A DNA stretch of 64,000 bases from Cyanobium sp. Cruz-8D1 (GTDB taxonomy: Bacteria; Cyanobacteriota; Cyanobacteriia; PCC-6307; Cyanobiaceae): positions 1 through 64,000 of the forward strand of contig NZ_JAGQCD010000007.1 of NCBI RefSeq assembly GCF_024345975.1, given 5' to 3'. Shown here in pieces: positions 3,154-14,248 of this stretch. A model generated the notes under the pieces. It ran no database searches, was not told the origin of the DNA, and saw nothing but the letters and a program-made list of their open reading frames with translations. Both the position numbers and the translations under genes were made by a program. Positions within the stretch are counted from its first letter, which is position 1. Every line of letters starts with the position of its first letter.

Positions 3154-3891
3154 ATGCAAACCATCGACTGGCTCTGGATCCTGCACCCCGCCCTGGCGGT
3201 GGTGCTGATCTACCCCCTGATCGGCATGGTGGTGCGGCTCGGGGTCCAGGCCCGCCAGCGCCGTGTCGACAAGGCGAAGCTGCCCCCCACCACCGGCCGC
3301 GACCACGCCGACCTGGGCCAGTGGCTGTCGGCGGGGGTGGTGCTGCTGGTGCTGGTGGCGCTCACGGTGGTGATCGTCACCAAGCAGCCGCCGGAGGGCT
3401 TCACGGGCGGCCCCGGCCGTGCCCTGCAGCTGCTGCTGGTGCTGGGGGGCACGCTGGTGTCATTGCTGGCCCTCTGGCGGGTGAAGGCCAAGGGCTACCG
3501 GCTCGTCTTCGCCCTGCTCACCTGGGCGGGCGTTCTCGGCCTCGGGGCCCAGCCGGAGGTGTGGCGCCTCAGTGACAACCCGCTGAGCCCCGCGTTCTGG
3601 CAGTCCCATTACTGGGCCGGGGTGGCCGTGGTGGGGCTGATGATCTTTTCGCTGGCCGCCCGCCCGGAGATCCTCAGGGATCTGCGCTGGCGCCGGCTGC
3701 ATCTCAGCGCCTCGATCCTGGCGGCGGTGCTGTTCGTGGCGCAGGGGATCACCGGCAGCCGCGACCTGCTGGAGATTCCCCTGGCCTGGCAGAAGCCCAC
3801 CATCTTTGCCTGCGATTCGGTGAAGCGGGTCTGTCCGCCCTTTGCCCCGCCTGAGGCGCCGGCCCCCGCCGCCGCTCCTGCCGGCAGCTGA
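3154..3891 (+). CDS. DUF4079 family integral membrane protein
   Basis: A 245-residue product with an N-terminal hydrophobic segment (WILHPALAVVLIYPLIGMVV), a cytoplasmic basic stretch, then further segments around residues 60-78, 88-110, 114-128, 148-166 and 190-205. The opening WxxHPALAVxxxYPxxG is typical of DUF4079 proteins found in cyanobacteria and plastids, with no assigned function. The Pro/Ala-rich tail is probably disordered. Its TGA overlaps the nadC ATG by one base (TGATG), indicating coupled translation. Confidence 0.85.
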   Translation: MQTIDWLWILHPALAVVLIYPLIGMVVRLGVQARQRRVDKAKLPPTTGRDHADLGQWLSAGVVLLVLVALTVVIVTKQPPEGFTGGPGRALQLLLVLGGTLVSLLALWRVKAKGYRLVFALLTWAGVLGLGAQPEVWRLSDNPLSPAFWQSHYWAGVAVVGLMIFSLAARPEILRDLRWRRLHLSASILAAVLFVAQGITGSRDLLEIPLAWQKPTIFACDSVKRVCPPFAPPEAPAPAAAPAGS

Positions 3892-4766
3892 TGTCGCCTG
3901 CTACTGCCGCTGTGCCGGTGCTGCCCTTCACCCCTGCCCTGGAGGCCCAGTTGCGCGGCTGGCTGGACGAGGACATCGGCCGCGGCGATCTCACCGCCCC
4001 GGCCCTGATCGGCCGCCCTGGCCGGGCCCACTGGGTCACCCGCGCCGATGGGGTGTTCTGCGGCGGGGTGCTGGTGGGGCCGCTGCTGGCGTTGTTGGAT
4101 CCCCAGACATCGGTGCGGCTGCTGGTGGCCGATGGGGAGCCGGTGGTTGCCGGCCAGCGGCTGCTGGCGCTGGAGGGGCCGGCGGCCGCCCTGGTGGCGG
4201 CGGAGCGCACGGCCCTCAACCTGGCCATGCGTCTGTCGGGCATCGCCACCGCCACCGCCGCCCTGGTGCAGGTGCTGGCGGGCACCGGCGTGCGCCTGGC
4301 CGACACTCGCAAGACCACCCCCGGCCTGCGGGTGCTGGAGAAGTACGCCGTGCGCTGCGGCGGCGGCTGCAACCACCGCCTCGGCCTCGACGATGCCGCC
4401 ATGCTCAAGGAGAACCACCTGGCCTGGTCGGGGGGCGTGGCGCCGGCCATCGCGGCGGTGCGGGCCGCGGCCCCCTGGCCGGCGCGGCTGATTGTGGAGG
4501 CGGAAACCCCGGCCGAGGCGATGGCGGCGGTGCAGGCCGGTGCTGATGCGGTGCTGCTCGACGACTTCACCCCCGCGGCGCTGGCGGCCCTGGTGCCCCA
4601 GCTGCGGGCCCTGGCGCCGGCGGTGCTGCTGGAGGCCTCCGGGGTGCGGCCCGAGCAGCTGGCGGCCTACGCCGCCACCGGCATCGATCTGATCTCCACC
4701 AGCGCCCCGGTCACCCGCAGCCCGTGGCTGGATCTGAGCATGCGCTTCGACCCCCTGCTGGCCTGA
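3891..4766 (+). CDS. nadC: nicotinate-nucleotide pyrophosphorylase (carboxylating)
   Basis: A 291-residue product. NadC converts quinolinate and PRPP to nicotinate mononucleotide, CO2 and pyrophosphate in de novo NAD synthesis. Family features in order are WLDEDIGRGDLT near residue 25, AERTALNLAMRLSGIAT near 105, ADTRKTTPGLRVLEKYAV near 135 with the Thr-Arg-Lys-Thr substrate loop, GGGCNHRLGLDDAAMLKENH near 160, VEAETPAEA near 200 and LLDDFTP near 220. The C-terminal LEASGV and GIDLISTSAPV complete the barrel. The start overlaps the DUF4079 stop by one base. Confidence 0.96.
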   Translation: MSPATAAVPVLPFTPALEAQLRGWLDEDIGRGDLTAPALIGRPGRAHWVTRADGVFCGGVLVGPLLALLDPQTSVRLLVADGEPVVAGQRLLALEGPAAALVAAERTALNLAMRLSGIATATAALVQVLAGTGVRLADTRKTTPGLRVLEKYAVRCGGGCNHRLGLDDAAMLKENHLAWSGGVAPAIAAVRAAAPWPARLIVEAETPAEAMAAVQAGADAVLLDDFTPAALAALVPQLRALAPAVLLEASGVRPEQLAAYAATGIDLISTSAPVTRSPWLDLSMRFDPLLA

Positions 4767-4846
4767 GCCGGGGCCTTGGTGAAGAATCGCCTGAGTCCCC
4801 CGGCAGCGCTGGCTCCGCCACCGATCGGTTGCCAGAGTGGGCGGGG

Positions 4847-5893
4847 ATGACCCCCGAGCCGACCCGCGTGCCGCAGCGACCCGTGCCGCATCCAGCCCTT
4901 CCGCACCCAGCAGCTCCGGCGAAGGCCGTCCCGATCGGGGTCGCCGCCCGAGCCAGGCGGTGCGGCGTGGTGGGACCCTCCCTGCTGCTGGCGCTGGTGG
5001 CGGCGCTGGGCAGCCCCACGCCAGCCAGGGCCGAATCGGTGCTCGAGCAGGCGGCGCGCACCGGCGAGATCACCATGGCCGGCCCCACCGACATGGTGCC
5101 CTTCGCCTACCGCGATGCCAGCAAGACGCTGGTGGGCTACAGCCTCGATGTGGCCCGGTTGATCGAGGCAGAGGTCTCCACCTATCTCAACCGGCCGGTG
5201 AAGATCGTCTACACCGTCAACGCGGATCCGCTGGCGGTGTTCCGTGACGTGAGCCGCGGTGATGTGGATCTGGCCTGTGGGGTTCAGTTCACCTGGGAGC
5301 GGGAGATGTTCGTCGACTTCTCGATGCCCTTCGCCCTCTCCGGGATTCGCGTGCTCACCCGGGAGGGGGGGCTCGATGGCTCGGCGGCCTCGATGGCGGG
5401 CAAGCGGATCGGCGTGGTGAAGGACTCCCTGGGCAGTGCCACCATCGCGGCCGTGCAGCCGACGGCGGTGCGGGTGCCCTTCGCCGGAATCGAGCCGGCG
5501 GTGCGGGCGTTGCTGGCCGGCCAGGTGGATGGCGTGGGGGGCGATTCCCTGCTGCTCGCCGGTGCTGTTCAGAGCTTTGGCGGCAAGGGTTACGGCCTGG
5601 TGCCCGCGGAGGCCTTCTCCCGCTTTGCGGTGGGTTGCATTCTTCCGGAAGACAACTCCACCTTCCGCAACCTGGTCAACCTGGCCATCGCCCGGCTGGT
5701 GCAGGGCTACCTCGACGATGAGCCGGCTGCCGTGGCCAGCGTCAACCGCTGGCTGGGTCCGAAGGGAGTCCTGGCGTTGCCCCCCGACGTGATCAAGGCC
5801 TATTTCCAGTCCGTTCTGCTCAACTACGAACGGGTCAGGCCCCTGTCGGCCACGAGCCCATCGCCTGTCGTCCCCACCTCACCTGCCCGTTAA
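4847..5893 (+). CDS. grrP: GrrP-type orphan periplasmic substrate-binding-like protein (copy 1)
   Basis: A 348-residue product from the ATG at 4847. A long Pro-rich start precedes a hydrophobic segment (LLLALVAALG) and an AxA-type signal peptidase site (TPARA/ES), so export is expected. The mature part follows the family-3 solute-binding fold: VLEQAARTGEITMAGPTDMV, FAYRDASKTLVGYSLDVA, then GDVDLACGVQFTWEREMFVDFS. No permease or ATPase gene is nearby. Placement directly before a Gly-rich precursor gene and upstream of a SPASM maturase matches the GrrP component of GRRM/OscB cyclophane systems. Its biochemical role is not established; ligand or product binding is a guess. A GTG at 4967 just before the signal core is an alternative start. 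Confidence 0.85.
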   Translation: MTPEPTRVPQRPVPHPALPHPAAPAKAVPIGVAARARRCGVVGPSLLLALVAALGSPTPARAESVLEQAARTGEITMAGPTDMVPFAYRDASKTLVGYSLDVARLIEAEVSTYLNRPVKIVYTVNADPLAVFRDVSRGDVDLACGVQFTWEREMFVDFSMPFALSGIRVLTREGGLDGSAASMAGKRIGVVKDSLGSATIAAVQPTAVRVPFAGIEPAVRALLAGQVDGVGGDSLLLAGAVQSFGGKGYGLVPAEAFSRFAVGCILPEDNSTFRNLVNLAIARLVQGYLDDEPAAVASVNRWLGPKGVLALPPDVIKAYFQSVLLNYERVRPLSATSPSPVVPTSPAR

Positions 5894-5906
5894 GGAGTGC
5901 CGCCCC

Positions 5907-6305
5907 ATGTCCATCACCTCCCGCGCGGCCCTGCTCGGTTTCTCCCTGGCTTTGGCGGCCTTGACCGCTCCGGCCGCCGGCCAGGCGGCCCTGCTGCTCT
6001 CCCCGGCCAGCACACCCTCCATCGAGCAACGGTTGCAGCGCATCAGCGCAGCGTTCCGCGCCCAGGGTGACGGGAGCGGGGCGGATGGCGCCTCCCCCGG
6101 CGACCAGCGGCTGGCCTATGGCTTCGCCAACGGCGGCCGGGGCGGCTTCGCCAACGCGGCCCGGGGCGGCTTCGTCAATGGGCACCCCTACTACGGCGGC
6201 GGCGGCGGCTTCCGCAACGGGGGCGGCGGTTTCGTCAATGCCAGGGGCGGGGGCGGCTTCGTGAATGGGGGCGGCATGCGCGGTGGGGCGTTCCGGAACT
6301 GGTAG
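5907..6305 (+). CDS. grrA: GrrA-type Gly-rich RiPP precursor (copy 1)
   Basis: A 132-residue product with an N-terminal signal-like helix (LLGFSLALAALTAPAAGQA), a leader block SIEQRLQRISAAF (residues 38-50), a linker, DQRLAYGFANGG (67-78) and a Gly-rich core. The core carries seven aromatic-x-Asn triplets: FAN 73 and 81, FVN 89, 109 and 118, FRN 102 and 129. The last is followed by a terminal Trp. Known GrrM/OscB maturases link the aromatic ring to the side chain two residues on, giving three-residue cyclophanes, so each triplet is a candidate ring. The spacing is irregular and the copies are diverged, unlike copy 2. It starts 13 bases after copy 1 of the binding protein. Confidence 0.88.
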   Translation: MSITSRAALLGFSLALAALTAPAAGQAALLLSPASTPSIEQRLQRISAAFRAQGDGSGADGASPGDQRLAYGFANGGRGGFANAARGGFVNGHPYYGGGGGFRNGGGGFVNARGGGGFVNGGGMRGGAFRNW

Positions 6306-6397
6306 GTCCCGCCAGGCCAGGGCGTTTCATGCCCCAACGCTGCCGTGGGCAAGCCCTGAAACCGCCCTTAAGGTGCAGCACGTGCACAGCTCTGCCC

Positions 6398-7360
6398 ATG
6401 GATTTTCCTGCTGCGCCGGTTGCCTCCGGTTCCGTCCGATCCCGCAGCAGCAGGCTCCTGGCCCTGGGAGCCCTGGCCTGCCTCTGGTCCCTGGGGGCCG
6501 CGACACCAGCCAGCGCCGCCGACGCCGTGCTGGAGCAGGCGGCCAAGTCCGGCGAGGTACTGATGGTCGGCCCCGCCGACAGCCCGCCCTTGGTCATGAT
6601 CGGGCCGAACGGGGAACCGGAGGGTTACGCCATCGAACTGGCCCGTCGCATCGACCGCCAGCTCAAGGCGGAACTGGGCAACAACGTCCGGATCCGCTTC
6701 GCCCCCGTGGACAACACCACCGTCACGGTGGGGGCTGTCTCCAGCGGCAAGGCCGGCCTGGCCTGTGGCGTGCCGTTCAGCTGGGAGAACGAGAAGCTGG
6801 TCGACTTTTCCCTCCCGATCGGTCTTTCCGGCCTGAGGCTGCTCACCCGCCGCGGCAGCCTTGATGGTTCCCCGGCCTCCCTCGCCGGTCAATCGATCGC
6901 TGTGGTGGAGGGGTCCCTTGGGGCCGGGCTGCTTGGTTCCCTCCAGCCCAACGCCAGGGCGGTCAGCTTCCCCACCCTGGCCCTGGCGGTTACGGGCCTG
7001 GAGCAGAACAAGGTGACGGGCGTGCTGGGCGATGCCAACGTGCTGGCGGGTCTGCGGCACCAGCGCCGACTGTCGGGCGTGCGCCTGGTGCCTGAGCAGC
7101 CCTACGTGAGCTATGGCGTCGGCTGCATCGTGCCGGAGAACAACTCCAGGCTGCTGAACGTGGTCAACCTGGCCATCGCGGGCCTCCTCCAGGGCTACCT
7201 GGAGGGCCGCCCCGAGGCCGTGGCCAGCATCGCCCCCTGGGTCGGCCCCACGGGTGTTCTGGTGGTTCCCACCGAGCGCGTCCGCGCCCTCTTCGAATCC
7301 GTGCTGCTGACCCGTGAAGGGTTCCACCTGGGGGCCCCTGCACCGGTGGCGCCCCGATGA
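6398..7360 (+). CDS. grrP: GrrP-type orphan periplasmic substrate-binding-like protein (copy 2)
   Basis: A 320-residue paralogue of the gene at 4847-5893. The start MDFPAAP at 6398 leaves a compact signal peptide (SRLLALGALACLWSLGAATPASA/AD). Matching blocks include VLEQAAKSGEVLMVGPADS, LACGVPFSWENEKLVDFSLP, IGLSGLRLLTRRGSLDGSPA, YVSYGVGCIVPENNSRLLN and WVGPTGVL. As in copy 1, no ABC transporter partner is present. Two diverged copies, each placed before its own precursor gene, suggest that each binding protein is matched to one peptide. That pairing is inferred only from gene order. Confidence 0.85.
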   Translation: MDFPAAPVASGSVRSRSSRLLALGALACLWSLGAATPASAADAVLEQAAKSGEVLMVGPADSPPLVMIGPNGEPEGYAIELARRIDRQLKAELGNNVRIRFAPVDNTTVTVGAVSSGKAGLACGVPFSWENEKLVDFSLPIGLSGLRLLTRRGSLDGSPASLAGQSIAVVEGSLGAGLLGSLQPNARAVSFPTLALAVTGLEQNKVTGVLGDANVLAGLRHQRRLSGVRLVPEQPYVSYGVGCIVPENNSRLLNVVNLAIAGLLQGYLEGRPEAVASIAPWVGPTGVLVVPTERVRALFESVLLTREGFHLGAPAPVAPR

Positions 7361-7433
7361 GCGCGCGGCCCTCCGCCCTGCAGCGGCCTGACCGCTCCGT
7401 CCCGCTCCCCCTTCCCTCCCTGGTAGCCCTCCG

Positions 7434-7823
7434 ATGACGAACCACCCCCGTGCCGGTTTGTTCAGTTTCCTGCTCCTGTTGGCGGCCCTGGCCCCCGCCG
7501 GCGCCTTGGCCCAGGCCTCGTCCCAGCTGGAGGCCGCGCCCGGGTCGATCGATGCCCGCCTGCGGCGCATCTCCGAGGCCATGGGGCAGGAGCCGTCCGG
7601 TCAGGAGCCAGCCGAGGGCCGGGCCAAAGCCCCCGATGGCCGCCTTGCCTACATCTTCGTGAACGGGGGCGGCCCCCGCTTCGGCTGGGGCAACGGCGGT
7701 TTCCGCAACGGCGGCTGGGGCAACGGGGGCTTCCGCAACGGCGGTTGGGGCAACGGCGGCTTCCGCAACGGCGGTTGGGGCAACGGTGGCTTCCGGAACG
7801 GTGGTTTCCGCAACTTCTGGTGA
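7434..7823 (+). CDS. grrA: GrrA-type Gly-rich RiPP precursor (copy 2), near-perfect repeats
   Basis: A 129-residue product with a signal-like helix (LFSFLLLLAALAPAGALA), a leader block SIDARLRRISEAM (residues 38-50), a linker, and DGRLAYIFVNGG (68-79), both blocks matching copy 1. The core holds FVN75, four copies of WGNGGFRNGG (85-124) and FRN125, ending FW. This gives ten aromatic-x-Asn triplets, alternating Trp and Phe every five residues. Each is a candidate three-residue cyclophane for the adjacent maturase. The stop overlaps the GTG start of the maturase by four bases, so precursor and enzyme are probably translationally coupled. Confidence 0.9.
   Translation: MTNHPRAGLFSFLLLLAALAPAGALAQASSQLEAAPGSIDARLRRISEAMGQEPSGQEPAEGRAKAPDGRLAYIFVNGGGPRFGWGNGGFRNGGWGNGGFRNGGWGNGGFRNGGWGNGGFRNGGFRNFW
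7686..7805 (+). repeat. four tandem 30-bp repeats in the grrA copy 2 core
   Basis: Four units encode WGNGGFRNGG and differ from one another only at scattered synonymous positions (GGC/GGG/GGT/GGA, CGC/CGG). The regular unit points to recent amplification by slippage or unequal exchange, while selection holds the Trp-Gly-Asn and Phe-Arg-Asn triplets. Confidence 0.9.
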
Positions 7824-8995
7824 TCGCCATCGGTACCCCGCCGCCCGGAAACCCTGAAGGCTTCGGGCCGTTGCAGCTGCTGGTGGTCCAGCCCACGCCT
7901 TACTGCAATCTCGACTGCGACTACTGCTACCTGCCCAACCGCGACGACCGGCACCGGTTACCGCTGGAGCTGCTGGAGGCGGCCCTGGACCGGGTGCTGG
8001 AGAGCCCGTATGTGGGTGGCGACTTCACCCTGCTGTGGCATGCCGGTGAACCGCTCACCGTGCCGATCGCCTTCTACGACGCGGCCAGCGCCTGCGTGCG
8101 GCGGGCGCTGGAGCGCTGGCAGGGGGAGCCCCTGGCGATCCACCAGTCGGTGCAGACCAACGCCACGCTGATCAACGCGGCCTGGTGCGACTGCTTCGAG
8201 CGCAACGGCATCTCTGTGGGCGTGAGCATGGACGGGCCGGCCTTCCTCCACGATCTCCACCGCCGCACCCGCACCGGCCTGGGGACCCATGCCGCCACCG
8301 TCCGCGGCATCGAGCATCTGCGCCGCCGCGGCATCCCCTTCCAGGTGATCGCCGTGATCACGGAGGAATCCCTCGGCCACGCCGATGAGCTGTTTGCCTT
8401 CTTCGTCGAGCACGGCATCACCGACGTGGCCTTCAACATGGAGGAGACCGAGGGGGAGAACCGGGTCTCCACCCTCAGCCGTCCCCATGCTGAGGCGGCC
8501 TATCGCCAGTTTCTGCAGCGGTTCTGGGGGCTGTGGCAGGAGCAGCCTGAGCGGATGCGGGTGCGGGAGTTTGAAGGCATCTGCAGCCTGGCCCAGGCCG
8601 ATGCCCGCCTGGAGTGCACCGACATGAACAACCCCTTTGCGATCGTCAATGTGGATGCCCGTGGGGCGATTTCCACCTTCGATCCCGAGTTGCTCTCGGT
8701 GCAGACAGACACCTACGGCGATTTCGTGCTGGGCCATGTGCAGAGCGACAGCCTGGTGTCGATCGCCGCCAGCCCCAAGTTTCGGCGCATCCTGGCGGAC
8801 ATGCGCGCCGGCACCGACCGCTGTCGCGCCGAGTGTGCCTACTTCGGTCTGTGTGGGGGAGGCGCCGGCAGCAACAAGTACTGGGAGCACGGCACCCTCG
8901 CCTGCACCGAAACCCAGGCCTGCCGCTACCGGATCAAGCTGACGGCCGATGTGGTGCTTGCCGGCCTGGAGGAAGCGCTGGGTCTGGCGTCCTGA
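7820..8995 (+). CDS. grrM: GrrM/OscB-type radical SAM/SPASM cyclophane maturase
   Basis: A 391-residue product from the GTG at 7820, whose last three bases are the grrA copy 2 stop (GTGA). The frame is open further upstream to 7745, but that part is the out-of-frame shadow of the repeats. The radical SAM cluster motif CNLDCDYC (CX3CX2C) lies at about residues 33-40. The C-terminal SPASM region has Cys residues in CSLAQADARLECTDMNN and DRCRAECAYFGLCGGG, with a final pair in LACTETQACRY. These fit auxiliary Fe-S clusters. The family builds a C-C bond between an aromatic ring and the side chain two residues downstream in GrrA-type peptides. One enzyme probably serves both precursors. Confidence 0.93.
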   Translation: MIAIGTPPPGNPEGFGPLQLLVVQPTPYCNLDCDYCYLPNRDDRHRLPLELLEAALDRVLESPYVGGDFTLLWHAGEPLTVPIAFYDAASACVRRALERWQGEPLAIHQSVQTNATLINAAWCDCFERNGISVGVSMDGPAFLHDLHRRTRTGLGTHAATVRGIEHLRRRGIPFQVIAVITEESLGHADELFAFFVEHGITDVAFNMEETEGENRVSTLSRPHAEAAYRQFLQRFWGLWQEQPERMRVREFEGICSLAQADARLECTDMNNPFAIVNVDARGAISTFDPELLSVQTDTYGDFVLGHVQSDSLVSIAASPKFRRILADMRAGTDRCRAECAYFGLCGGGAGSNKYWEHGTLACTETQACRYRIKLTADVVLAGLEEALGLAS

Positions 8996-9187: not shown

Positions 9188-10081
9188 TCAATGGGCTGGG
9201 GGTTCTTCTTTCTCCGGAGGGGCCAAGGATTCAAAGAACTCCTCTTCGCGCTTGGAGGCCGACTTCTGGAACGGCATCCCAGGCCTGGCCTGGCCAGTTC
9301 CAGCCCGCCGAGGCCGGAGAGACGCCCAGAGGCGGCCTAGCAGGTCAGGCACTTCAACCAGGAATGGCACGATGCTGTTTTTTCTCTGGGCCAGCGTGGC
9401 GAAGGCGATGGCGAAGGCCATGGAAGAGATCATGACCCGCAAGCTCTCCCGGGTGATCCGTTCGCCCGTGGCAGGGTCGATGGGTGCGACCCTCGCCTTG
9501 AACTGGCCTTCCGCCTGATCCACTCGGGAAAGAAGTTGCCGTTTCAGTTGCGGCAGGGGAATGGCGGGGAATCGCTCGGGATCGAGGGTGATGCGCAGAT
9601 CAGGACGCTGCAACGCGAGAAGGCGTTTCTGAAGATCTTCGGTACTGGTGGCCTGCGTGATGGCCTGACGAACAGCATTTCCTCGTTCGGTGGCGCTGGC
9701 CTGCTGCTGGCTTGCGACGGAATTGGAACGGAGATAGGACGTCCAGACGACATGGCCCTGCAAGGGAACGATCAGCAGAAATCCGAGGCTGGCCAGGATG
9801 GCCAGCCGAGCCAAAGCATCCCGTCGCCTCTGAAGCCGGAGATTGGCCGGGTAGAGGTAAGCAGCTAGATGCAACAGAGCCAGACCGAGCAGTGGAATGG
9901 GTGCAGCTTCCACGGCGATCTTGATGCTGCTGAGTTGCCAGAGTGGATCGAGCAACTTTGGCGGCAGGATGAACGCCAGAACCGAGATCAGATAGACCGC
10001 AAACAGAGCCATGGCGACCACCGCCAGACGGTCGGCGAAAATCGCCTCCTCAAGACTTCTGATTTGTGGGGTCGTAGTCAT
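9188..10081 (-). CDS. HpsJ-like membrane protein (cyanoexosortase-associated type)
   Basis: A 297-residue product with four likely transmembrane segments: residues 20-40, 57-75, 91-106 and near 212-228. Between the third and fourth is a polar region with a helical Gln/Ala-rich part. The charged C-terminus (KSASKREEEFFESLAPPEKEE cut short here by rule at the lysine cluster) is cytoplasmic-looking. The architecture and the blocks PPKLLDPLWQL and RRRDALARLAILASLGFLLI resemble HpsJ-family proteins, known from hormogonium polysaccharide secretion and from loci with cyanobacterial exosortases. The neighbouring PEP-CTERM gene supports this. No exosortase gene is in the window. Confidence 0.65.
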   Translation of the reverse strand: MTTTPQIRSLEEAIFADRLAVVAMALFAVYLISVLAFILPPKLLDPLWQLSSIKIAVEAAPIPLLGLALLHLAAYLYPANLRLQRRRDALARLAILASLGFLLIVPLQGHVVWTSYLRSNSVASQQQASATERGNAVRQAITQATSTEDLQKRLLALQRPDLRITLDPERFPAIPLPQLKRQLLSRVDQAEGQFKARVAPIDPATGERITRESLRVMISSMAFAIAFATLAQRKNSIVPFLVEVPDLLGRLWASLRPRRAGTGQARPGMPFQKSASKREEEFFESLAPPEKEEPPAH

Positions 10082-10410
10082 TGTTGAGAGTATGGCGGTA
10101 AGTCAGGCTCTGAAAATGTGAACTCTTGATGTCTGAATCAGACGTGCTTAATCCTTGTCTTCGCCATTTATTCTGACATGTCTTTGGCCAGCCATGGTAT
10201 GAAGCTTATTCAGATAAAGCCTGGTCGAAGTCAGGCTGAGTTAGGCACTGGAGGTACAAGCCAGCCTGGGCCTAAATGGTCATAACCAGTCTGTCATCAA
10301 TAGGATGTCCGTCGCATTGTTGAGGCAGAATGCAAAAAGCCTGCTCAATATGAACAGGCTCATGAATCAATCACTAATTAACTGAGGGTAGCAGCTGAGT
10401 GATGTGACAA
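10082..10410. other. AT-richer intergenic region between the HpsJ-like and PEP-CTERM genes
   Basis: This stretch holds the upstream region of the HpsJ-like gene and the terminator of the PEP-CTERM gene (10334-10360). Its base composition is visibly lower in GC than that of the flanking genes. No open frame with protein-like composition was found. Confidence 0.6.
10334..10360 (-). terminator. Rho-independent terminator for the PEP-CTERM gene
   Basis: On the minus strand AGCCTGTTC and GAGCAGGCT pair as a 9-bp stem with one G-U pair around the loop ATATT, followed by TTTTT. It lies about 50 bases after the PEP-CTERM stop, which is the expected place and orientation. Confidence 0.85.
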
Positions 10411-11238
10411 TCAACCAATCACGGATTGGACTTTCATGCGGCGGCGCAGTTTCCGGCTGTAACCAAAAGCGGCTGCGGCGCCGAGCAGGGGAAGTGGGCC
10501 AGGCACTTCATCCCCAGGGGTTTGAGGGACGCCACCCCCGGTTCTGATGCTTGTTGCCCATACTTTATCGCTTCCTTCTCCAATCGGAATATCCTTCCAC
10601 CGCATAAAGAAGTTACCAGGGAATTGGCCCGCGGACGGAGTACCATCTGGCGCACCGGTGTCGTTGAACAACGCCACGAAGGCATCGCGGTATTGGGTGG
10701 CGGTGGTCAAAGGATCATTAGTGCTACTAAAAGTGAATGTTCCTACTGTAGTGGAATCGCCGTTCGCCAAGCCGTCAGCGGGAGATCCACTAGCGTCACA
10801 GTCACTCGGAGGGTTAATTGACGCACAGATGTCGAATGTTGTATTATCTAGCATGCCGTTAGTTACTATATTCCATTTTGGGTCTGACGCTACAAAGCTG
10901 TCGCTGACATAGCTAATATCGGAGACGGTTGGAGGGTTGGTGGGTAGATTGAAGCCAGTGCTAACAAGCTTGGAGCTCGTTGTCGAGAGATTGTTCAGAC
11001 TAAGAACCATCTTTCCGGGCGTGCCCGAAAGAAAGGTGTAAGTGGCTTCGCCAAGGATTCCATTGATACCCCCATTCGTACTGCTGGCGGAGGTGGACTC
11101 AAAATGAAGCGTGAAGAAGGGGTCGTCGACGGCTAAGGCGGGAAAAGCTGCTAGGAGGCTCAGGATCCCAGCTGCAGACACGGTGCCGACGGACCTGGCA
11201 ACCACACGGGTTGCTGAACGCGTGGTGAGTGGGCCCAT
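10411..11238 (-). CDS. PEP-CTERM surface protein with cyanobacterial sorting signal
   Basis: A 275-residue product. The N-terminal signal peptide runs to about residue 36 (ILSLLAAFPALA/VDDP). The body is rich in Ser, Thr, Asn and Gly and predicted to be beta-rich, with no recognised enzymatic domain. The C-terminus carries VPGPLPLLGAAAAFGYSRKL followed by RRRMK. This short Pro-rich motif, hydrophobic helix and basic tail are typical of substrates of cyanobacterial exosortases, which cleave near the motif during export. Codon use is less GC-biased than in the neighbours (TTA, AGT and ATA occur), which suggests acquisition or relaxed selection. Confidence 0.85.
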   Translation of the reverse strand: MGPLTTRSATRVVARSVGTVSAAGILSLLAAFPALAVDDPFFTLHFESTSASSTNGGINGILGEATYTFLSGTPGKMVLSLNNLSTTSSKLVSTGFNLPTNPPTVSDISYVSDSFVASDPKWNIVTNGMLDNTTFDICASINPPSDCDASGSPADGLANGDSTTVGTFTFSSTNDPLTTATQYRDAFVALFNDTGAPDGTPSAGQFPGNFFMRWKDIPIGEGSDKVWATSIRTGGGVPQTPGDEVPGPLPLLGAAAAFGYSRKLRRRMKVQSVIG

Positions 11239-11575: not shown

Positions 11576-11697
11576 GCCGACGCGTCATGTCTGCCGCCGC
11601 AGATCGCCGCCCCGGTGATGGTGGATGTCTCCAGCCCCAACACCGCCAAGGAGAGACACGTGCGCTCCACGACCATCGGTGATTCCACCCTCAGGAC
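11576..11697 (+). pseudogene. relic of an argS N-terminal segment
   Basis: The translation reads DASCLPPQIAAPVMVDVSSP, then NTAKERHVRSTTIGDSTLR. It matches two non-adjacent parts of the intact ArgS encoded 1.2 kb downstream: [12 protein letters not shown] and [19 protein letters not shown] followed by [14 protein letters not shown]. Relative to argS, about 36 codons are missing between the first two parts and the GHL of the HVGH motif is deleted. The DNA matches closely, including AGCCCCAACA and CGCCAAGGAGA. This is a rearranged partial duplication, not a functional gene. Confidence 0.75.
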
Positions 11698-11736
11698 GCA
11701 TCCAGGAGCCAGCCCCCTTTCACCTGAATTGATCGG

Positions 11737-12381: not shown

Positions 12382-12442
12382 CCCCTCGCTCCACCGGGGA
12401 GGATGATCACGGCCACGCCCGCCATTGCATCGGTTTCGTTCC

Positions 12443-14248
12443 ATGCTGCGCCTTTCCCAAGCCCTGAACACCCTGTTGGTGGGGGCAGTGGAGAGGGCGT
12501 TCCCCGAGGCGGCGGCCGCCGCCCGAGAGGCTGGCGCGCCACTGGATCCCCAGCTGGGGCCGGCCTCGAAACCGGAGTTCGGTGATTTCCAGGCCAATGG
12601 CGCCCTGGCCCTGGCCCGGCCCCTGAAGCTGGCCCCCCGTGCCATTGCCGCCGCGATCGTGGCCCAGCTGGAGGCCGACCCGGCCTTTGCGGCCCTGTGC
12701 CTGCCGCCTGAGATCGCTGGCCCGGGCTTCATCAACCTCACCCTCAAGCCCGAGCTGCTGGCCGCCGAGGTGGCGCGCTGCCTGGCCGATCCCCGGCTGG
12801 GGGTGGAGGCCGTGGCCGCAGGCGGCGCCCCGGTGGTGGTGGACTTTTCAAGCCCCAACATCGCCAAGGAGATGCACGTGGGCCATCTGCGCTCCACGAT
12901 CATCGGCGACGCCCTGGCGCGGGTGCTGGAGTTCCGCGGCCATCCGGTGCTGCGGCTCAATCACGTCGGCGACTGGGGCACCCAGTTCGGCATGCTCATC
13001 ACCCACCTCAAGCAGGAGGCCCCCGAGGCCCTCGACACCGCCGACGCCGTCGATCTGGGCGATCTGGTGGCCTTCTACCGCCAGGCCAAGGCCCGCTTCG
13101 ACGCCGATGAGGCTTTCCAGGCCACGGCGCGCGAGGAGGTGGTGAAGCTGCAGAGCGGCGATCCGGTGTCCCGCAAGGCTTGGCAACTGCTCTGCGATCA
13201 GTCGCGCCGCGAATTCCAGCGCCTCTACGACCGCCTCGACATCCGTCTTGAGGAGCGCGGCGAGTCTTTTTACAACCCCTACCTGGAGTCGGTGGTGGCC
13301 GACCTGGCCGTCGAGGGCCTGCTCGTCAGCGACGGTGGCGCCCAGTGTGTGTTCCTCAAGGGGGAGGACGGGGCGGCCAGCCAGGCGCCGCCGGTGATCG
13401 TGCGCAAGAGCGATGGCGGCTTCAACTACGCCACCACCGACCTGGCGGCCATCCGTTATCGCTTCGCCGCATCTCCCGATGGTGATGGGGCCCGGCGGGT
13501 GATCTATGTGACCGACGCCGGCCAGGCCAGCCATTTCGCCGGGGTGTTCCAGGTGGCCCGCCGCGCCGGCTGGATTCCCGACGACGGCTGCCTGGAGCAT
13601 GTGCCCTTCGGGCTGGTGCAGGGGGAGGACGGCAAGAAGCTCAAGACTCGCTCCGGCGACACCGTGCGGCTCAAGGAGCTGCTGGATGAGGCGGTGGAGC
13701 GCTGCGAGGCCGATCTGCACCGCCGCCTGGTCGAAGAGGAGCGCCACGAGGACGCCGCCTTCATCCGTGAGGTCTCCACCACCGTGGGCCTGGCGGCAGT
13801 GAAGTACGCCGACCTGAGTACCAACCGAATCACCAACTACCAGTTCAGCTTCGATCGCATGCTGGCCCTCAGCGGCAACACCGCCCCCTATCTGCTCTAT
13901 GCGGTGGTGCGGATCGCCGGGATTGCCCGCAAGGGCGGCGCCGATGCCGCCGGCGCCGCTTTCCCCGCCCCCCTGGTGTTCGGCGAACCCCAGGAGTGGG
14001 CGCTGGTGCGCCAGTTGCTGCAGTTCGATGCGGTGATCCTGGAGGTGGAACAGGAACTGCTGCCCAACCGGCTGTGCAGCTACCTGTTTGAGCTCTCCCA
14101 GGTGTTCAACCGCTTCTACGACCAGGTGCCCGTGCTCAAGGCCGAAGAACCGGCCCGCGGATCGCGGCTGGCCCTCTGCCGCCTCAGCGCCGACACCCTC
14201 AAGCTGGGCCTGGGGCTGCTCGGCATCACCACTCTGGAGAGGATGTGA
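12443..14248 (+). CDS. argS: arginyl-tRNA synthetase
   Basis: A 601-residue product from the ATG at 12443 ([10 protein letters not shown]); an ATG at 12425 is also in frame. It charges tRNA-Arg. The N-terminal tRNA-D-loop-binding domain contains [15 protein letters not shown] and [10 protein letters not shown]. The class I signature is [20 protein letters not shown] (HVGH). KMSK is represented by [11 protein letters not shown]. The C-terminal anticodon-binding DALR domain includes [17 protein letters not shown] and ends near [12 protein letters not shown]. The 3' end overlaps the convergent acetyltransferase gene by 23 bases. A short relic of its 5' part lies upstream (11576-11697). Confidence 0.97.

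What the first reader, a model, noticed from the sequence alone, without database searches (positions are those of the whole stretch)
4847..8995. Cyclophane-RiPP cassette with duplicated precursor and binding-protein genes
The order is grrP-grrA-grrP-grrA-grrM on one strand within 4.2 kb. Seen directly: two secreted Gly-rich peptides with aromatic-x-Asn triplets, two family-3 binding-like proteins without transporter genes, and one radical SAM/SPASM enzyme. Known: GrrM/OscB enzymes make three-residue cyclophanes in GrrA-type precursors. Inferred: the duplication gives two different multi-ring products from a single maturase, each with its own binding protein. The biological role of such products in cyanobacteria is undescribed.
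Basis: partly seen in the sequence, partly recalled or inferred. Interest (0 to 1): 0.9.

Follow-up and report, generated by a model that had tools for sequence, protein, structure and literature searches.

The report
Two peptide–receptor pairs, one maturase
A Cyanobium-like cyanobacterium carries two long-diverged pairs of a glycine-rich peptide gene and a binding-protein gene in front of a single enzyme gene that likely builds rings into both peptides, an arrangement that was probably made by stacking two versions of one locus rather than by copying one pair on the spot.

Summary
Window 4847-8995 encodes grrP-grrA-grrP-grrA-grrM on the + strand; all five proteins pass NCBIfam cut-offs for GrrP, GrrA/OscA1 and GrrM/OscB. 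The precursors have 7 and 10 aromatic-x-Asn triplets. The genome shows two GrrP matches and one GrrM match.

"Duplication" is not how the pairs came together. GrrP1 groups with GrrPs of single-pair loci that have another GrrM type (100*); a clade of both local GrrPs is rejected (p-AU 6e-55). The window's GrrM belongs with the second pair's lineage. After nadC, near relatives hold either pair alone: L036 only pair 1, with its own GrrM type; L010, L011, L013, L131 only pair 2. Each pair keeps its own upstream DNA.

So two versions of a locus are stacked on one maturase, which likely modifies both precursors. That each GrrP binds its own product is inferred; co-variation tests did not settle it. 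I count 11 distinct paired loci, those with a genus code all in the window's genus, plus one independent case in another genus whose first precursor frame is broken. New variant of a known kind.

The parts
3891..4766 (+). nadC, left neighbour that marks the site
   Evidence: TIGR00078 277.8 bits, cut-off 198.4; upstream of the cassette in 57 of 63 type-2-side loci
4767..4846 (+). upstream region of pair 1, similar to that of the other paired loci aligned and more weakly to L036
   Evidence: alignment of 11 loci
4847..5893 (+). GrrP1, family-3 binding-like protein, type 1 (Gln131 at 5285-5287, Arg136 at 5300-5302 in the numbering)
   Evidence: TIGR04262 265.7 bits; fold model and matches
5907..6305 (+). 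GrrA1, type-1 precursor with 7 FxN triplets
   Evidence: TIGR04260 69.5 bits; triplet count
6018..6044 (+). leader helix SIEQRLQRI of GrrA1, likely maturase recognition
   Evidence: motif; role inferred
6177..6200 (+). NGHPYYGG, element typical of type-1 GrrA
   Evidence: HxYYG in 23 of 116 distinct GrrAs
6306..6397 (+). upstream region of pair 2; in L010, L011, L013 and L131 the same stretch follows nadC directly
6398..7360 (+). GrrP2, family-3 binding-like protein, type 2 (Asn at 6788-6790 where most GrrPs have Arg)
   Evidence: TIGR04262 219.8 bits
7434..7823 (+). GrrA2, type-2 precursor with 10 triplets in a WGN/FRN array
   Evidence: TIGR04260 65.1 bits
7545..7571 (+). leader helix SIDARLRRI of GrrA2
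   Evidence: motif; role inferred
7820..8995 (+). GrrM, radical SAM/SPASM maturase of the type-2 lineage
   Evidence: TIGR04261 571.1 bits; trees

Best explanation
This is a GrrM/OscB-type cyclophane-peptide locus in which two long-diverged grrP-grrA pairs stand in front of one radical SAM maturase that likely cross-links both precursors, and each product would then be exported and bound by the GrrP encoded beside it. Shown here: the five genes and their families; that pair 1 groups with loci of another GrrM type while the maturase belongs with pair 2; that single-pair versions of both kinds sit next to nadC in near relatives; that each pair keeps its own upstream DNA. Inferred: pair 1 was added to a pair-2 locus by recombination between two versions of the site after nadC. 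Inferred from published OscB chemistry: the enzyme joins the aromatic ring to C-beta of Asn in the triplets (up to 7 and 10 rings). Inferred from a leader helix present in both precursors: the enzyme recognises that helix, so a precursor of the other type can still be processed. Inferred from the signal-peptide-like N-termini: rings form in the cytosol, export follows by Sec, and GrrP meets the product outside the inner membrane. Least certain: that each GrrP is matched to its own peptide.
For: Families over curated cut-offs. GrrP1s of ten paired loci plus the GrrPs of six type-1 single loci are one side of a branch, 100*; P1+P2 as one clade rejected, p-AU 6e-55. Eight type-1 GrrMs are one side of a branch, 100/99.8; paired-locus GrrM together with L036's or with the eight type-1 GrrMs as one clade rejected, p-AU 1e-113 and 6e-78. 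L036 carries nadC-P-A-M with nadC 87% identical but GrrM only 66%. L010, L011, L013 and L131 have nadC followed directly by the pair-2 upstream region, P2, A2, M. Median synonymous distance of P1 across paired loci (0.156) is lower than of P2 (0.248), M (0.256) and three flanking genes (0.206-0.277); P1 is below P2 in 51, below M in 52 and below nadC in 46 of 55 pairs, which suggests that pair 1 spread later than the neighbours diverged. Purifying selection on all five genes. Similar leader helix in both precursors. OscB chemistry: passages of PMC11002830. One GrrM match in the genome.
Against: No chemistry was tested. In 37 single-pair loci the P-A distance correlation after removing M, nadC and argS is modest (0.35) and below P-M (0.68); with the core alone it is 0.16 (13 of 500 permutations as high), so the data do not show that GrrP tracks the mature core. 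The link between Gln131 in GrrP and HxYYG in GrrA (21 of 22 against 0 of 90) rests on two independent contrasts. Paired-locus GrrMs are not a clade without pair-2-only loci (p-AU 4.5e-5), so loss of pair 1 in some strains is also possible. L036's right flank is not on its contig, so its place is shown by the left flank alone. GrrP2 of the window lacks the Arg that most GrrPs have. Lower P1 dS could partly be codon bias.
Confidence: 0.55

Rival explanations
1. The paired locus is ancestral: an old duplication, after which most lineages lost one pair and kept a maturase fitted to the other.
For: Pair-2-only loci L010, L011, L013 and L131 nest among paired loci in the GrrM tree, and paired GrrMs alone are rejected as a clade, p-AU 4.5e-5.
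Against: GrrM itself splits into a type-1 and a type-2 branch, so type-1 loci did not inherit the window's maturase; P1 is the least diverged at synonymous sites; pairing was seen in one genus-level group plus one independent case.
Confidence: 0.2
2. GrrP is a stand-alone amino-acid or nutrient sensor whose ligand is not the GrrA product; the gene order only reflects a shared regulon.
Against: No transporter genes on the contig; P and A of one type stay together when the maturase differs; the Arg is replaced in 3 of 11 P2s and in 20 of 92 other rows.
Confidence: 0.25
3. GrrP is an immunity protein against its own GrrA, a secreted inhibitor; stacking pairs widens both attack and protection.
For: Each precursor is preceded by its own GrrP, whole cassettes seem to be exchanged at one site and differ more than the flanks (L036: flanks dS 0.28-0.37, cassette 0.59-0.82).
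Against: No activity is known from any call here; a ligand-binding fold is an unusual immunity protein (recalled, not searched).
Confidence: 0.12
4. Only GrrA2 is processed; pair 1 is a passenger that this type-2 maturase does not accept.
For: GrrM is not of pair 1's lineage; A1 has the highest median dN/dS of the five (0.317).
Against: Median dN/dS of A1 is still far below 1 and its frame is open in all 11 paired loci; both precursors bear the leader helix. In L185 by contrast the upstream frame is broken.
Confidence: 0.13
5. Recent tandem duplication of one pair followed by divergence, as first proposed.
For: The two pairs are homologous and adjacent.
Against: P1+P2 clade rejected, p-AU 6e-55.
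Confidence: 0.02

Closest known systems
GrrA/OscA1 - GrrM/OscB triceptide (three-residue cyclophane) loci
   Same: Precursor, maturase and binding-like protein belong to NCBIfam TIGR04260, TIGR04261, TIGR04262 over cut-off; OscB cross-links Trp or Phe to C-beta of Asn or Asp (PMC11002830, passages; the original 2020 and 2022 papers seen only in its reference list).
   Different: Two diverged P-A pairs on one maturase; 59 of 87 census loci read PAM and 6 of 87 PAPAM.
Single-pair type-1 loci (L034, L036, L042, L045, L047, L059)
   Same: GrrP of pair 1's kind, and HxYYG in the precursor.
   Different: Own type of GrrM, no second pair; only L036 of the eight type-1 loci shows nadC beside it.
Single-pair type-2 loci nearest the window (L010-L014, L016-L018, L131)
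   Same: Same GrrM lineage, pair-2 kind of GrrP and GrrA, nadC as left neighbour.
   Different: Pair 1 absent.
DEBP, glutamate/aspartate-binding protein (2vha, 2ia4)
   Different: No permease gene on grrP's contig; Ser/Thr residues next to the first Cys are replaced.

Membership tests
GrrA/OscA1 precursor (TIGR04260) | score over the curated cut-off of 31 bits | tested here: met
   69.5 and 65.1 bits
GrrA/OscA1 precursor (TIGR04260) | aromatic-x-Asn triplets in a Gly-rich C-terminal part | tested here: met
   7 and 10 triplets
GrrM/OscB maturase (TIGR04261) | score over 310 bits, full length | tested here: met
   571.1 bits, profile 1-363 of 363
GrrM/OscB maturase (TIGR04261) | forms C-C three-residue cyclophanes | not testable with these tools
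   known for OscB (passages); not assayed here
GrrP (TIGR04262) | score over 190 bits | tested here: met
   265.7 and 219.8 bits
ABC-transporter binding component (family 3) | binding-protein fold | tested here: met
ABC-transporter binding component (family 3) | permease genes alongside | tested here: not met
   none of 19 PF00528 matches in the genome lies on contig C76
Tandem gene duplication in place | copies are each other's nearest relatives | tested here: not met
   p-AU 6e-55 against P1+P2
Cognate peptide-receptor pair | receptor and peptide co-vary beyond what linked genes share | tested here: inconclusive
   P-A partial r 0.35, P-core 0.16; Gln131-HxYYG link has two independent contrasts

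The most novel reading that the evidence does not exclude
grrP-grrA pairs are specificity cassettes: each exported multi-ring peptide has its own periplasmic receptor, pairs are inherited and exchanged as units at a fixed site after nadC, and one maturase serves whichever pairs stand in front of it, so this strain runs two peptide types at once, much as pherotypes work in Gram-positive signalling.
Probability: 0.2. Interest if true: 0.78.

Novelty: new variant of a known kind. Interest (0 to 1): 0.55.

Why it matters
What GrrP does and what the ringed GrrA products are for is not described in any paper that my searches listed. The paired locus is a natural experiment: a maturase of one lineage stands with a precursor of another, so maturase tolerance can be tested directly, and two GrrPs with their two peptides in one cell allow a clean cross-binding test of whether GrrP is the product's partner. 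Single-pair relatives of both kinds supply matched controls.

Tried and rejected
Local duplication: rejected by the AU test. A first test of 'all type-1 GrrM one clade' gave p 9e-7; that set held L068, which sits beside L034 but whose contig showed no P or A, and it was counted outside. Without L068 the careful tree has the eight on one branch. The mirror-tree test for P-A matching gave no clear answer. The Gln131-HxYYG link is 21 of 22 against 0 of 90 (the exception is L176, which has RRYYG) but has two independent contrasts only. Loss of the amino-acid clamp in GrrP: not general, since the Arg is kept in most rows. The 13 'PM' census loci are at least partly a failure of my GrrA profile: GrrA-like frames are visible in L120, L173, L077 and L134 (four looked at). 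The mnmE query was translated in a wrong frame and still tagged the gene; redone in frame, confirmed as MnmE. The label DUF4079 for window 3154-3888 is recalled; NCBIfam gives no family.

Limits: the 80 loci are the best 80 of 89 and lean to close GrrM relatives; the family census drew 201 genomes from a larger group; several contigs end inside the cassette. Trees are quick (SH-aLRT only) and leave out rows: one search uses 55 rows, searches use 48, with long-branched rows and every second other type-2 row left out.
Full report
Observation. NCBIfam places each over its curated cut-off: GrrP 265.7 and 219.8 bits (cut-off 190), GrrA 69.5 and 65.1 (cut-off 31), GrrM 571.1 (cut-off 310). GrrA1 has 7 FxN triplets, GrrA2 has 6 FxN and 4 WGN. 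The genome has two GrrP-family matches, both over cut-off, and one GrrM match. Of 19 permease-domain matches in the genome none is on the window's contig; two of them lie near two family-3 binding proteins on another contig, C65.

How common. Among the 80 loci found with GrrM (best 80 of 89), P-A-P-A-M occurs in nine: L003-L009, L015, L038. In a census of 201 genomes of the family GrrM is over its cut-off in 78. I fetched 86 stretches around matches, some below cut-off; with the window that is 87 loci: 59 PAM, 13 PM, 6 PAPAM, 4 M, 2 AM, 1 PPAM (one GrrP in two frames, L132), 1 PAMM (one GrrM in two pieces, L165), 1 PPM (L185). The six paired loci are in six genomes of the window's genus code g1, of 11 g1 genomes listed with a match. 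Four of the six lie on contigs of the same length as paired loci, so I count 11 distinct paired loci: the window, nine, and L119. L185, of another genus (g5), also reads P-A-P-A-M, but its upstream precursor frame is broken; its downstream GrrP groups with neighbours' GrrPs (100/99) and its upstream one lies outside them (99/97), so that stacking is independent. In a phylum-wide sample 52 of 292 genomes have a GrrP match at E<=1e-30; reading that table, two matches within 5 kb occur only in the window's genome (three g1 genomes were in the sample).

Origin. The two pairs are 43% (GrrP) and 46% (GrrA) identical. GrrP1 of ten paired loci and the GrrPs of six single-pair loci (L034, L036, L042, L045, L047, L059) are one side of a branch with support 100*, and a tree holding P1s and P2s together is rejected, p-AU 6e-55 (55 rows). 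GrrM tells the other half: eight GrrMs of type-1 loci are one side of a branch (100/99.8, 48 rows), and paired-locus GrrM lies with type-2 loci. So pair 1 stands with a maturase that is not of its own lineage.

The site. Setting aside eight type-1 and nine distant loci, nadC lies upstream in 57 of 63 loci, argS downstream in 51, both in 46; mnmE, nadC and argS pass their NCBIfam cut-offs in the window, the hisC-like gene does not. L036 has the same left neighbours, nadC 87% identical, but holds only a type-1 P-A-M whose GrrM is 66% identical to the window's; its contig ends before any right neighbour. L010, L011, L013 and L131 have nadC (88-94%) followed at once by the pair-2 upstream stretch, GrrP2, GrrA2 and GrrM (90-93%). 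In the window the same stretch starts just after the grrA1 stop (GCGTTTCA at 6322, GCACGTGC at 6378), while the DNA before grrP1 resembles that of the other paired loci and, more weakly, of L036. Synonymous distances fit an exchange: against paired loci L036 has 0.28-0.37 in three flanking genes but 0.59, 0.82 and 0.69 in P1, A1 and M; among paired loci P1 has 0.156 against 0.248 (P2), 0.256 (M) and 0.206-0.277 (flanks); A1 has 0.228 and A2 0.364. In 37 single-pair loci GrrP distance does not follow nadC once argS is accounted for (partial r -0.23), as expected if whole cassettes are swapped at this site. I infer that pair 1 was added to a pair-2 locus by recombination between two versions of the site. 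Because pair-2-only loci nest among paired ones in the GrrM tree (p-AU 4.5e-5 against the paired ones alone), later loss of pair 1 in some strains, or spread by further exchange, must be part of the story.

Mechanism. OscB, of the same family, joins C7 of Trp or C4 of Phe to C-beta of Asn on coexpression with its precursor in E. coli (passages of PMC11002830). GrrA1 and GrrA2 share a leader helix, SIEQRLQRI and SIDARLRRI; a strict form of the motif occurs in 100 of 116 distinct GrrAs, of which some are contig fragments. I take it as the likely recognition element, which would let one GrrM accept both. Both precursors begin with a signal-peptide-like stretch (by eye), so export by Sec after modification is the simplest route; I recognised no exporter or protease gene beside the cassette by eye, and ran no search for one.

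Verdict. A known kind of RiPP locus in a new arrangement: two versions stacked on one maturase. The ring chemistry is a firm prediction, the pairing of GrrP with product a testable one.

Noticed in passing
window 11609-11704 (+): A degenerate 32-codon fragment of argS (57.5% identity over 40 alignment columns, E 6e-6) upstream of the intact argS at 12425-14248.
   Followed up: partly
window 9188-11238 (-); L006, L007, L009, L015 downstream of grrM: An HpsJ-family gene (62.9 bits, cut-off 60) next to a weakly PEP-CTERM-like gene is single in the window; matches to one or both recur two or three times in these relatives at the same place.
   Followed up: no
L185:4756-8769: Second, independent P-A-P-A-M arrangement in another genus; the upstream precursor frame is broken.
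   Followed up: partly
L134:2676-9540 and L198:2024-9341: grrP and grrM lie more than 4 kb apart, with a GrrA-like frame next to grrP in L134, so the tight gene order is not obligatory.
   Followed up: no
L072: A record titled Bifidobacterium breve MAG carries this cassette and groups inside cyanobacterial trees; probably mis-binned.
   Followed up: no
window 6378-6385: Palindrome GCACGTGC in the pair-2 upstream region, present in 10 of the 15 loci aligned; a possible regulator site.
   Followed up: no
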